Notes under the pieces: model-generated
Seen by the model: only the letters and a program-made list of their open reading frames with translations
What the model was told of the DNA's origin: nothing
Databases searched by the model: none
Source: Candidatus Finniella inopinata
Lineage (GTDB): Bacteria > Pseudomonadota > Alphaproteobacteria > Holosporales > Holosporaceae
Assembly: GCA_945888455.1 (NCBI GenBank)
Contig: CAMCZV010000004.1
Span: 1-64,000 of the forward strand
Direction: 5' to 3'
DNA length: 64,000 bases
Made by a program: the position numbers and the translations under genes
In this document: piece by piece, positions 24,405 through 43,408 of the stretch
Layout: the number at the start of each line of letters is the position of its first letter
Position numbering within the stretch: the first letter of the stretch is position 1

Positions 24405-25279
24405 TTATCCTTGTGCATCGGTTTCTGCGCCATCATCTTCTGGTGATTCCTTTACTTTTTCTGATTGCGTGGATGATTCACCATCCTTTTTGAATGCATA
24501 TCTCATATTGACCAGTACGCTAAACTTATTCTCTATATCTGCGTTGCCGCCGCCCCACGAACAACAGCCCTCTACAATTCTTTCAAAGGGAAACGGAAGT
24601 GGATTTTCATAAGTCGATGCGCAGATCAGCTTTGATCCTTCAATATTGTTTGGTGCTTTTTCGATGCTTAGACCCAGTGCATGTGCATTTTCTGTGGCTG
24701 TTTTTTCACCGTCTTTTACGGCCTCTTTGGTTAATTCTTTTTGCAATTCAAAACCTTTTGAGTAAAAAAATTTCAGACTTTGCGCAGAAAAGACAAATCC
24801 TTTTTTTGCCAAATGATTGGTTTTGTGTTGTACATCAGAGGCCATGTCCAGATCATTCATGGTTAGAACAATCGTGTATTGCACAGAGTACTTGTTTTGT
24901 TTAGCATCTGAAATTTTGATATCGGGTCGATTATCCACATCGATCATATCTGATTTTATCCCCATTTTGATCCAGAATGTCTTTAACTCCTTTACCTGAC
25001 GATGCAGTTTTTCAAGAAGTTCTTGGCAATCATCACCACTGACAGAAAGGGCTAATTCCAATACCGCATAATCAGATCTAACCATTCTCTCTGCATACCC
25101 TGTTACATTCAATCCAGGGTGCTCCCCACCGTAACATACCCTGTATACCCTGATCCAGGGTTCTCCCTAACGTAATCGTAATAGTAATGGCCACAAACCT
25201 TGCTGCTCATCGTGGTTAAGCCACATGCACCCAGCAGAAAGGTAACAGCAATTATATTTTTTCTGAATGTTGTATTCAT
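24405..25279 (-). pseudogene. SIMPL-domain (DUF541/YggE-like) gene copy A, frameshifted after the signal peptide
   Basis: Two frames make up one gene. The first (25279 down to 25109) encodes a signal peptide and about 35 further residues, ending in VTVGSTLD-stop. The second (from 25112) encodes the whole SIMPL domain, NVTGYAERMVRSDYAVLEL onward, in the -1 frame. The intact copy C at 26672-27523 shows the two parts should be joined. Adding one G to the G4 tract at 25124-25127 would restore it. SIMPL proteins are periplasmic or surface proteins (E. coli YggE, Brucella BP26). The domain frame is undamaged and could restart at the TTG overlapping the stop, but would lack a signal peptide. The tail is acidic. 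Confidence 0.7.
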
Positions 25280-25442
25280 TAACTGTTTTTGCATTAATGC
25301 GCTGTGTTTTTATATTGAACCATTTTATTTGAAAAAACGTTAAAACAAATATTAGATTATTGAAAAGAAAAACAAATAAATCATTTTTTTCCTGTGATGG
25401 GATTTTGTATCAGGTAACCTTGGATCCAGAATACGGAATCAG

Positions 25443-25466
25443 AAAAACCCCAGGATTGGCCTGGGG
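25443..25466 (-). terminator. Terminator of SIMPL copy B
   Basis: Minus strand: CCCCAGG, loop CCAAT, CCTGGGG, then TTTTT. Seven perfect pairs, located about 70 bases after the original stop of copy B. Confidence 0.75.
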
Positions 25467-25533
25467 TTGGTTAACAAGAGGCAGCAACCCCTTCAAGGGG
25501 GATTATTGATCCTTGCGCATCAGAGAAGCATCT

Positions 25534-26421
25534 TTATCCTTGTGCATTAGATTTCGAGTCATCTTTTTCGGCCGATTCTTGTTCTGACGATGGGTTTTTA
25601 CTGTCCTTTTTACTGTCTTTTTTGATCGTCCTATTTGATTGCATAGCTCATATTGACCGCTACTGAAAATTTGTTTTCTATGTCTGTGCTGCCGCCGCCC
25701 TCCCAACTTCTGTGAAATGGAAACGGATGATCATAGGTCTGTGCAGTGCTCAAATCTGTATTTCCAATATAAAAGGGTGTCTTTTCAATGCGTAGACCCA
25801 ACACCTCTGCATGTTCTCTGGCTGTTTTTTCACCGTCCTTTAAGGCCTCTTTGGTTAATTCTTTTTGCACTTCAAAACCTTTTGAGTAAAAAAATTTCAG
25901 ACTTTGTTCAGAAAAGACAAATCCTTTTTTCATAAAAATGGCGGTTTTGTTTTGTACAGCAGGGGCCATGTCCAGATCATCCATGGTTACAAAAATCGCC
26001 TGTTGAATAGAGTATTTGTTTTGTTTCTTATCTGAACCATATTCCAAATCTGAAATTCTGATATCTGTACGATTGTCCACATGGATCATGTCTGACTTTA
26101 CGCCCATTTTGATCCAGAATTGCTTTAATTCCTTTATTTGCTTGTCCAGTTTTTGAAGCAGTTCTTTGTAGCAATCACCAATAACAGATAGGGCTAATTC
26201 CAATACCGCATAATCAGATCTAACCATTCTCTCTGCATACCCTGTTACATTCAATCCAGGGTGCTCCCCACCGTAACATACCCTGTATACCCTGATCCAG
26301 GGTTCTCCCTATCGTAATCGTAATAGTAACGGCCACAAACTTTACTGCTCATCGTGGTTAATCCACATGCACTCAGCAGAAAGGTAACAGCAATTATATT
26401 TTTTCTGAATTTTGTATTCAT
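25534..26421 (-). pseudogene. SIMPL-domain gene copy B, two frameshifts
   Basis: It has the same layout and the same G4-tract frameshift (26266-26269) as copy A: signal-peptide frame ending in VTVGSTLD-stop, then the SIMPL domain in the -1 frame. A second break lies near the C-terminus: the domain frame ends early at NMSYAIK-stop (25631), while the tail matching copy C (KDSKNPSSEQESAEKDDSK) continues in another frame to a TAA at 25534-25536. The 3' flank of about 165 bases is nearly identical to that of copy C, so the array arose by recent tandem duplication with a unit of about 1.14 kb. Confidence 0.75.
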
Positions 26422-26580
26422 TAACTGTTGTTGTATTAATGCGCTGTGCCTTTATGTTGATCTATTTTACTTTAAAAAACGTTAAAACAATTATTAAATT
26501 GTTGAAAAAAATAAATAAATCATTTTTTCTGTGATGGGAGTTTTGTATCAAAAAACCTTGGGTCTGGAATAGGGAATCAG

Positions 26581-26604
26581 AAAAACCCCAGGATTGGCCT
26601 GGGG
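26581..26604 (-). terminator. Terminator of SIMPL copy C
   Basis: Minus strand: CCCCAGG, loop CCAAT, CCTGGGG, then TTTTT; identical to the copy B terminator and placed about 70 bases after the copy C stop. Confidence 0.75.
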
Positions 26605-26671
26605 TTGGTTAACAAGAGGCAGCAACCCCTTCAAGGGGGGTTATTGATCCTTGCGCATCAGAGAAGCATCT

Positions 26672-27523
26672 TTATCCTTGTGCATTAGATTTCGAGTCAT
26701 CTTTTTCGGCCGATTCTTGTTCTGACGATGGGTTTTTACTGTCCTTTTTGAATGCATAATTCATATCAACCAATACGGTAAAATTGTTCTCTATGTTTTT
26801 GCTCCCGCTGAACCAACATCTTTCATAGGGTGATGGGTTTTCATAAGTCGAAACGCAGTCCAGTGTGGATTGGCCGATCCTGATTGGTACGATGCTTAGA
26901 CCCAGTGTCTGTGCATTTTCTGTGGCTGTTTTTTGACCATCCAGTATGGCCTCTTTGGTTAATTCTTTTTGCAATTCAGCAGCCTTAGTATACAAATAAT
27001 GTAAACTTTGTCGAGAAAAGACAAATCCTTTTTCCACCAAAGTGTTGGTTTTGTTTTGCACATCAGGGGCCATGTCCAGATCATCCATTGTTACAACAAT
27101 CGTCTGTTGAATAGAGTATTTGTTTTGTTTCTTATCCGAATTATATTCCAAATCTGAAATTCTGATATCTGTACGATTGTCCACATGGATCATGTCTGAC
27201 TTTACGCCCATTTTGATCCAGAATTGCTTTAATTGCTTGGTTTGCTGGTCCAGTTTTTGAAGCAGTTCTTTGTAGCAATCGCCAACAATAGAAAGGGTTA
27301 AGTTAAAGACTGCACGATCGGATTTAACTATTCTTTCGGCACGCCCTTTGATAGTCAGGCCAGGGATGGGGATGGATTGCTTCGATACATAACAATCCGG
27401 TACATAATGCTCGTTTCCATAGTCAACATAATCGCCACAAACCTTGCTGTTCATGGTGGTTGCACCAAATGCACCGAGAAGAAAAGTAAAGGCAAGTGTA
27501 TTTTTTCTGAATTTTGTAGTCAT
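26672..27523 (-). CDS. SIMPL-domain (DUF541/YggE-like) periplasmic protein, intact copy C
   Basis: 283 residues, the only copy of the three-gene array with one open frame. A signal peptide (MTTKFRKN plus a hydrophobic core to about residue 30) sends it to the periplasm or surface. The SIMPL domain runs from about residue 54 (LTIKGRAERIVKSD) to about 255 (NNFTVLVDMNYAFKKD), with the family's alternating strands and amphipathic helices. The Asp/Ser/Glu tail is shared with copies A and B. E. coli YggE lowers oxidative stress and Brucella BP26 is an immunodominant antigen; whether either role applies here is unknown. Confidence 0.85.
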   Translation of the reverse strand: MTTKFRKNTLAFTFLLGAFGATTMNSKVCGDYVDYGNEHYVPDCYVSKQSIPIPGLTIKGRAERIVKSDRAVFNLTLSIVGDCYKELLQKLDQQTKQLKQFWIKMGVKSDMIHVDNRTDIRISDLEYNSDKKQNKYSIQQTIVVTMDDLDMAPDVQNKTNTLVEKGFVFSRQSLHYLYTKAAELQKELTKEAILDGQKTATENAQTLGLSIVPIRIGQSTLDCVSTYENPSPYERCWFSGSKNIENNFTVLVDMNYAFKKDSKNPSSEQESAEKDDSKSNAQG

Positions 27524-31978: not shown

Positions 31979-32036
31979 ATCCTCATTCTCGTGAAAACGG
32001 GGATCCAGTAGATTCCCGCCTACGCCGGAATGACAT
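31979..32036. repeat. Dispersed palindromic repeat, copy 1
   Basis: The element has tctcgtgaaaacggggatcc, then cagtagattcccgcctacgc and cggaatgacat. Its palindromic core ATTCCCGC-CTAC-GCCGGAAT has one mismatch. The pattern resembles widespread ATTCCC/GGGAAT repeats such as Neisseria dRS3. Confidence 0.8.
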
Positions 32037-32195
32037 GATGGATTGCGGGAATGACATAAGAGATGCGCAGGAATGACACAAGAGATGCGCGGGAAGGAAA
32101 TGATGGATTGCGGGAAAGAGATAAGAAATACGCAGGAAGGACATAGGAGATACGCCCTGTGACCCAGGTGCCATCCTCGTGAAAATCCTGCATTG

Positions 32196-32249
32196 TCATC
32201 CTCGTGAAAACGGGGATCCAGTAGATTCCCGCCTACGCGGGAATGACAT
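32196..32249. repeat. Dispersed palindromic repeat, copy 2
   Basis: Nearly identical to copy 1 about 215 bases away. The core at 32225-32244 is a perfect palindrome: ATTCCCGC, loop CTAC, GCGGGAAT. Fragments of the same element (gcgggaatgacat, gatgcgcaggaatgacac) fill the space between the two copies. Confidence 0.85.
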
Positions 32250-32307
32250 AGTAGAGCGTAGACGTGACATAGTAGAGCGTAGACGTGACATAGTAGAGCG
32301 TGGACGT
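32245..32307. repeat. 21-bp tandem repeat, three units
   Basis: The unit gacatagtagagcgtagacg plus t is repeated three times, with one change in the third. It starts inside the end of palindromic repeat copy 2 and probably arose from it by slippage. Minus-strand frames through it are repeat artefacts. Confidence 0.9.
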
Positions 32308-32536
32308 GACATAGGATAAGCAGGAATGACATAGGAAAAAACTAGGGCAGAGAGAGAGGGGTTGATTCACAATCGCCTGAAACGATTGTTCGCCCTTCGG
32401 GTTGCTTCGCATCGTCATCATGCCCCCGGCACGATGATCGAACCCTCTGCTCTCTTCATCCCTTTCAATAAAATCGTAGGTAATCTGGTAAATAACGAGC
32501 AAGGTCTCGGGGGTAGGAACGAGCAAGGTCTCGGGG
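32308..32536. other. Repeat-rich non-coding stretch beside tRNA-Ser
   Basis: No gene was found. The phrase aacgagcaaggtctcgggg occurs twice with a 24-base period (32494 and 32518), the second running into the tRNA 3' flank. A near-palindrome around 32411-32442 (catcgtcatcatg ... cacgatgatcg) could fold. Confidence 0.5.
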
Positions 32537-42003: not shown

Positions 42004-42038
42004 AGGGCAGGGTGATGTTGTGTGGTCAAAAGGGCAAT

Positions 42039-42163
42039 CATGCCAAAGGCGCCAATATGCACACTGATCATATACCTTATTGTATGGTTTGTAAAAATCG
42101 TCATGCCAAAGGCGCCAATATGCACACTGATCATATACCTTATTGTATGGTTTGTAAAAATCG
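42039..42163. repeat. 63-bp tandem duplication upstream of ubiE
   Basis: Bases 42039-42101 and 42102-42163 are identical apart from the last position. The unit starts catgccaaaggcgccaatat and ends ggtttgtaaaaatcg. Its length is 21 codons, so any frame through it is preserved. On the minus strand it lies in a 61-codon frame whose TGA overlaps the ubiE ATG as ATGA, which could be a leader peptide; coding is unproven. Confidence 0.9.
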
Positions 42164-42337
42164 ATATATTCAGTCTTTGGTCCATAAGGGAATGTATGGA
42201 CCGCCGTTTTTACACCTCTGGTGCAATGCTCTCACGGGATTCATTGTCTTTGACCTTTTGTAACAGGAGCAGTATTCTTGGGATAAATGGCGGTATCCCA
42301 GTGTATCGCAACGCCATATCACAGCCACAGAGACCCT

Positions 42338-43408
42338 ATGAACAGCACAGAGACAGAAGATACGCCCCAAAATTTTGACCAGGCGCATGATGAAAAAACA
42401 GAAGTATTGACGGCCTTTGATCGCTGGTTGCAGATCAACCACAGCGCCCTGTTAACCCGACAGTCGTATGAACGCAGTGTTCGGTTTTTTTGGGATTTTT
42501 TGTCCCTATACCATGGAAAATCCATCACCAAAATGGATATCGTGGCCGTAACCATGACGGATATGCGGGCTTTTTTGGCTTATCGCAGTGAAAACAGGGC
42601 TTCTCATACCACGAATGCTCAATCCCTGTCAGGTCTGAAAACATTTTATCGGTTTTTGATTCAACAAGGGCATACGTTATCCTGGTCTTTGCACCGATTA
42701 CGGCGCCCTCGATTGCCCAGAACCCTGCCTCGCCCCCTGGATCAATCCCAATTAGATCCCTTGATGGCACCGCCATTGCTCCATCACGCCTCGTGGATAG
42801 AATGGCGCAATTACAGTGCCATGGTGTTGTTGTACGCCACAGGTTTGCGTATCCAAGAGGTTTTAAATATTAATTGGGGCGATTGGGGAAAGGACGCTGG
42901 CCTGTCCGTGGTGTCCAAAGGCGACAAAGCCCGCATTGTGCCCGTTTTGCCTATTGCGCTGAATGCTGTGAATACCTATTGGCAGAAAAACCCTTGGGGG
43001 GCAAAAAATGGTGCTGAAACACCTTTGTTTTTGGGGGAAAAGGGGGGGCGATTGCAGGCCAGCATTTTACAAAAATCGTTGCGCGCCATGCGTCTGGCTT
43101 TTGGGTTGCCTGATCATGTGACTCCCCACAGTTTTCGGCACAGTTTTGCATCTCATTTATTGGATGGTGGCGCATCATTGCGTGATGTACAAGAATTGCT
43201 GGGCCACTCTTCGGTTAGAGCCACTCAAAAGTATACTCAAACCACCCAAAAACGATTGCAAGAGCTGTATCAATCGGCCCATCCCAGCATGACCAACAGC
43301 ATACAAAAAAAGCCATCAGATGGAGTGATAGTTGGAACAGATTCTGGAACAGCTGATGGAGCAGGGGATGGAGCCCTAACGGGAACAGCGGATGGAGCAA
43401 ATGCCTGA
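42338..43408 (+). CDS. xerC: XerC/D-type tyrosine recombinase
   Basis: About 356 residues. Xer recombinases resolve chromosome dimers at dif. The N-terminal SAM-like DNA-binding domain ends near residue 150. The catalytic set is complete: Arg in ATGLRIQEVL, Lys in VSKGDKAR, HSFRHSFASHLLDGG (His and Arg), His in LLGHSSVRAT and the nucleophile Tyr in QKYTQ. The last 40 residues form an unusual Gly/Thr/Asp-rich tail (GTADGAGDGALTGTADG). The frame is open from 42287; the ATG at 42338 is closer to typical starts. XerC rather than XerD is a best guess. No dif site was identified. Confidence 0.88.
   Translation: MNSTETEDTPQNFDQAHDEKTEVLTAFDRWLQINHSALLTRQSYERSVRFFWDFLSLYHGKSITKMDIVAVTMTDMRAFLAYRSENRASHTTNAQSLSGLKTFYRFLIQQGHTLSWSLHRLRRPRLPRTLPRPLDQSQLDPLMAPPLLHHASWIEWRNYSAMVLLYATGLRIQEVLNINWGDWGKDAGLSVVSKGDKARIVPVLPIALNAVNTYWQKNPWGAKNGAETPLFLGEKGGRLQASILQKSLRAMRLAFGLPDHVTPHSFRHSFASHLLDGGASLRDVQELLGHSSVRATQKYTQTTQKRLQELYQSAHPSMTNSIQKKPSDGVIVGTDSGTADGAGDGALTGTADGANA

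What the first reader, a model, noticed from the sequence alone, without database searches (positions are those of the whole stretch)
24405..27523. Tandem SIMPL-gene array where two copies share the same frameshift
Copies A and B carry an identical break at a G4 tract just after the signal-peptide region, while copy C is intact. Domain frames of A and B remain open for 200 or more codons and the G tract sits exactly between export signal and domain. Either a broken gene was duplicated, or the tract is a switch (phase variation or -1 frameshifting) that turns export on and off. The undamaged domain in A speaks for some constraint; the second lesion in B speaks for decay.
Basis: partly seen in the sequence, partly recalled or inferred. 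Interest (0 to 1): 0.6.

Follow-up and report, generated by a model that had tools for sequence, protein, structure and literature searches.

The report
Duplicated lesion in SIMPL gene array
Two of three neighbouring copies of an exported-protein gene in a small alphaproteobacterial genome are broken at the same place by a 41-base tandem duplication that was then copied from one gene to the other; this looks like ordinary gene decay in a recombining gene family, not an on/off switch at a run of Gs.

Summary
In detail: three tandem minus-strand SIMPL (PF04402) genes, with C intact and A and B split at the same point between signal peptide and domain. The G4 explanation does not hold. In A and B the linker carries a head-to-tail 41-bp tandem duplication (30/41 identical; 41 = 13 codons + 2 bases), which alone produces the frame change. 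The G4 is merely inside the second unit, and G/C runs of 4 or more occur 475 times in the window. All intact relatives lack this insert: three array copies in same-genus G002 and one in G001. The insert is therefore derived in this lineage. A and B are identical over 122 nt spanning the lesion, but about 9% and 22% different on either side. B is a mosaic of A-like, C-like and G002-copy-3-like segments. So the broken segment was probably copied between neighbours by gene conversion. There is no slippery heptamer in the 58-nt frame overlap. dN/dS, the proposed test, is indecisive: A's branch is 0.66, indistinguishable from background (0.54) or from 1, because the intact family also evolves at about 0.35-0.6. 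Best reading: two recently broken copies, with a minor chance that a domain-only product persists.

The parts
24405..25112 (-). Copy A, SIMPL domain frame (from TTG; frame open from 25166), no stop or frameshift inside
   Evidence: (PF04402, 8.4e-15)
25109..25279 (-). Copy A, signal-peptide ORF (lipobox-like LLGAC), ends at TGA 25111-25109
25135..25175 (-). Copy A, first 41-bp unit of the tandem duplication
25094..25134 (-).
25048..25169 (-). Copy A, 122-nt tract identical to B, spanning the lesion; inferred gene-conversion tract
25631..26254 (-). Copy B, SIMPL domain frame, ends at nonsense TAG 25633-25631 after the domain
   Evidence: (9.9e-14)
25537..25614 (-). Copy B, C-terminal tail remnant in another frame, C-like
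26251..26421 (-). Copy B, signal-peptide ORF, ends at TGA 26253-26251
26277..26317 (-). Copy B, first 41-bp unit
26236..26276 (-). Copy B, second 41-bp unit
26190..26311 (-). Copy B, 122-nt tract identical to A
26672..27523 (-). Copy C, intact SIMPL gene (283 aa), with its own in-frame linker expansion (shared origin with A/B's insert not shown)
   Evidence: (2.8e-17)

Best explanation
This is a three-gene tandem array of exported SIMPL (DUF541) proteins that undergoes concerted evolution. In this lineage a 41-bp tandem duplication arose in the length-variable linker between signal peptide and domain of one copy. Because 41 is not a multiple of 3, it put the signal peptide and the domain in different frames. 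The broken segment was then transferred to the neighbouring copy by gene conversion or unequal exchange, so both share the same break. A and B are most likely young pseudogenes of an exported protein. Their open domain frames are explained by recent origin and need no programmed frameshift or switch. Shown: the duplication, its length, its absence from relatives, the identical tract and the mosaic structure of B. Inferred: the order of events, the conversion mechanism and the loss of function.
For: The two abutting 41-bp units match at 30/41 (offset 41 exactly), a score never reached in 2000 Markov shuffles. The linker core matches the domain start (p about 7e-4). Same-genus G002 has the array at the same site with all three copies intact and short linkers, and G001 has one intact copy. 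A's linker is a net 35 nt longer than its closest relative G002-2 (counted on the alignment). A and B are identical over 122 nt across the lesion, against 141/155 on the 5' side and 434/555 on the 3' side. B is a mosaic: middle 140/147 to C and 143/147 to G002-1, 3' half 315/346 to G002-3, tail 83/83 to C. G002's own copies share 70- and 89-nt identical tracts. Other short tandem duplications occur at this locus (33 bp in the G002-1 tail, 23 bp in G001).
Against: The units are 27% diverged, so the duplication is not brand new; the central 9-nt difference needs an extra event or several changes. In a sample of 2000 stretches of the window itself, 45 had a self-match as good. A's domain has no stop and dN/dS 0.42 (0.23-0.82) against G002-2, like intact pairs, so a remaining function is not excluded. 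Only three genomes of the genus are held, with no strain data.
Confidence: 0.76

Rival explanations
1. Split but living genes: the domain is still translated from an internal start (TTG 25112/26254 behind GGGGAG, or ATG 25085/26227 behind GAGAGA) as a cytoplasmic protein, possibly coupled to the signal ORF, whose stop overlaps the TTG.
For: The signal stop overlaps the TTG start, and purine-rich stretches precede both candidate starts. Both domains are free of stops and frameshifts. dN/dS of A's domain is 0.42.
Against: Only 5 of 32 long ORFs in the window have an SD-like motif, near the background rate, so the purine stretch is weak evidence here. A fully unconstrained A branch would still keep an open frame with probability about 0.16 (stops only), more if the lesion is younger. 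All intact relatives carry the signal in frame.
Confidence: 0.14
2. Programmed -1 frameshifting in the 58-nt overlap joins signal peptide and domain.
For: The frame offset is -1, and the longest stretch identical in A and B is the one around the lesion.
Against: No slippery heptamer; only the A-site GGG can re-pair. Intact relatives have no frameshift to programme. Long identical tracts also occur elsewhere between copies.
Confidence: 0.03
3. Phase-variable switch: gain and loss of the 41-bp repeat unit (or of a G in G4) turns export on and off.
For: Direct repeats can contract by slippage (general knowledge); the insert sits between export signal and domain.
Against: The units are only 73% identical, with short perfect runs, so contraction should be rare. 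G4 is short and one of 475 such runs in the window. No variant allele was seen in any genome.
Confidence: 0.04
4. Whole-gene duplication of an already broken gene gave A and B.
For: Shared lesion and similar upstream regions.
Against: A and B differ by 22% beyond the tract. B's 3' half is closest to G002-3 and A's to G002-2, so the two copies predate the lesion.
Confidence: 0.03

Closest known systems
SIMPL / DUF541 family (PF04402), e.g. bacterial periplasmic proteins of the BP26 / YggE type (names from general knowledge)
   Same: All three copies match PF04402 above the curated cut-off; C matches solved SIMPL proteins 7c50 and 10am; N-terminal export signal by eye
   Different: A and B have the signal and the domain in different frames; the genes are a fast-evolving tandem array of three
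Concerted evolution and lesion spreading by gene conversion in tandem gene families
   Same: Identical tract bounded by diverged flanks; mosaic copies; intact relatives
   Different: Nothing beyond the particular gene family and host; inferred from three genomes only
Phase variation by repeat-number change
   Same: A direct repeat sits between export signal and domain
   Different: Two diverged units only, no allele variation seen, no long homopolymer

Membership tests
SIMPL (PF04402) | Match to the Pfam profile above the gathering score | tested here: met
   64.1, 56.0 and 52.5 bits against cut-off 25.2
Functional exported SIMPL protein | Export signal in frame with the domain | tested here: not met
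   In frame in C, G002-1/2/3 and G001; out of frame in A and B
Gene conversion | Tract of near identity between paralogues bounded by diverged flanks | tested here: met
   122/122 against 141/155 and 434/555
Phase variation (homopolymer) | Long homopolymer at the frame change | tested here: not met
   G4 only; 475 G/C runs of 4 or more in 64 kb
Phase variation (homopolymer or repeat number) | Length variation between cells or strains | not testable with these tools
   No reads or same-species strains held; the genus has three genomes
Programmed -1 frameshifting | Slippery X XXY YYZ heptamer in the overlap | tested here: not met
   No heptamer; only G GTG GGG with A-site re-pairing
Pseudogene | dN/dS near 1 after the lesion | tested here: inconclusive
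   A branch 0.66; 2dlnL 0.21 against background and 0.90 against 1

The most novel reading that the evidence does not exclude
The shared 41-bp duplication is kept by selection as a device that uncouples export from the domain: A and B make a cytoplasmic SIMPL domain, or an on/off exported protein by repeat contraction, alongside the exported copy C.
Probability: 0.08. Interest if true: 0.55.

Novelty: new member of a known kind. Interest (0 to 1): 0.2.

Why it matters
It is a compact example of how recombination among tandem copies can spread a disabling mutation as readily as it can repair one, in a small (0.81 Mb) genome of probable Holosporales. It also warns that a frameshift beside a short G run need not be caused by that run.

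Tried and rejected
The G4 slippage idea: replaced by the 41-bp duplication. A shared origin of C's longer linker with A/B's: a first end-to-end test looked significant because it included homologous flanks, but the internal-only test gave p = 0.11, so this is not claimed. dN/dS as the arbiter: run pairwise and by branch model, indecisive. Nonsense expectation: about 1.9 stops expected on a fully neutral A branch, P(0) about 0.16, so the open frame is weak evidence of constraint. Search for the allele in viral contigs: none. One further genome of the genus (G001) is broken by contig ends at the array, so its copy number is unknown. Literature searches found no study of this array.

Full report
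WHAT IS THERE. On the minus strand between an mgtE-like gene and a photolyase gene (both named here from their sequences) lie three tandem SIMPL (PF04402) copies: A (24405-25279), B (25537-26421) and C (26672-27523). All three domains pass the Pfam cut-off, and no other SIMPL gene was found in the genome. C is one open frame. In A and B the signal ORF ends at a TGA, and the domain continues in the -1 frame. The two frames overlap by 58 nt in both copies. The domain frame is open for 253 codons in A and 225 in B. B has a nonsense codon right after the domain and a C-like tail beyond it in another frame.

THE BREAK IS A TANDEM DUPLICATION. The self-match of the A linker has its best offset at exactly 41 and length 41, so two units abut head to tail, 30/41 identical. 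No Markov shuffle of 2000 reached that score, although 45 of 2000 random stretches of the window did, because short tandem repeats are not rare in this genome. 41 = 39 + 2, so one extra unit gives precisely the -1 relation between the frames. The second unit's 3' part is identical to the intact relative G002-2 at the domain start, while the first unit has diverged, mainly in one central 9-nt block. The G4 (25124-25127) lies in the second unit. G/C runs of 4 or more number 475 in the window.

RELATIVES. Three genomes of the genus are held. G001 has an intact copy at a contig end and the tail of another. None has the insert. Linker length is variable in the genus, and C has its own in-frame expansion, for which shared origin with A and B could not be shown (p = 0.11).

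HOW TWO COPIES CAME TO SHARE IT. A and B are identical over 122 nt around the lesion (A 25048-25169), with 141/155 identity upstream and 434/555 downstream. At the upstream rate, 122 identical sites have probability about 1e-5. B is a mosaic of A-like, C-like and G002-3-like stretches. A resembles G002-2 through most of the domain. The copies therefore existed before the lesion, and the broken segment moved between them; the direction is not established. Long identical tracts between copies in G002 (70 and 89 nt) show that such exchange is usual in this array, so the shared tract need not mean selection on the lesion.

FUNCTION OF A AND B. Pairwise dN/dS for the intact family is about 0.35-0.6, against 0.085-0.18 for neighbouring genes. 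A against G002-2 is 0.42 over the domain (0.23-0.82), and B's 3' half against G002-3 is 0.46 (0.22-0.96). A branch model gives 0.66 for A, not different from 0.54 elsewhere or from 1. These values mix time before and after the lesion, so neither decay nor constraint is shown. The absence of stops in A is expected with probability about 0.16 even if the entire branch were unconstrained (stops only; indels would lower it). No slippery heptamer lies in the overlap. Internal starts exist, but SD-like motifs are scarcely used in this window (5 of 32 long ORFs, background 10%).

VERDICT.

Noticed in passing
window 26672-27523 and L028 8511-11460: The lipobox-like LLGAC/LLSAC is present in A, B and the G002 copies, but C has LLGAF and G001 LLCAL, so lipidation may have been lost in the only intact copy of this genome. 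Judged by eye, no predictor was run.
   Followed up: no
window 24405-27523 against L028 8511-11460: Copy order differs: A-like and B-like genes are swapped between the two genomes (C-B-A against C-A-B, counted from the photolyase gene), another sign of exchange within the array.
   Followed up: partly
window 32021-32314: Two nearby tandem repeat arrays (period about 22/65 with GGAATGACA, and period 21), probably intergenic.
   Followed up: no
window 42038-42163: Perfect 63-bp tandem duplication within a small ORF of unknown reality (42022-42378).
   Followed up: no
window 24405-25112 against L028 9588-10430: dS between A and G002-2 (0.16) is below that of neighbouring genes (0.32-0.43), perhaps chance or exchange between lineages.
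   Followed up: partly
L029 28-73 and 1035-1080: A 23-bp perfect tandem duplication present at both SIMPL tails of G001.
   Followed up: no
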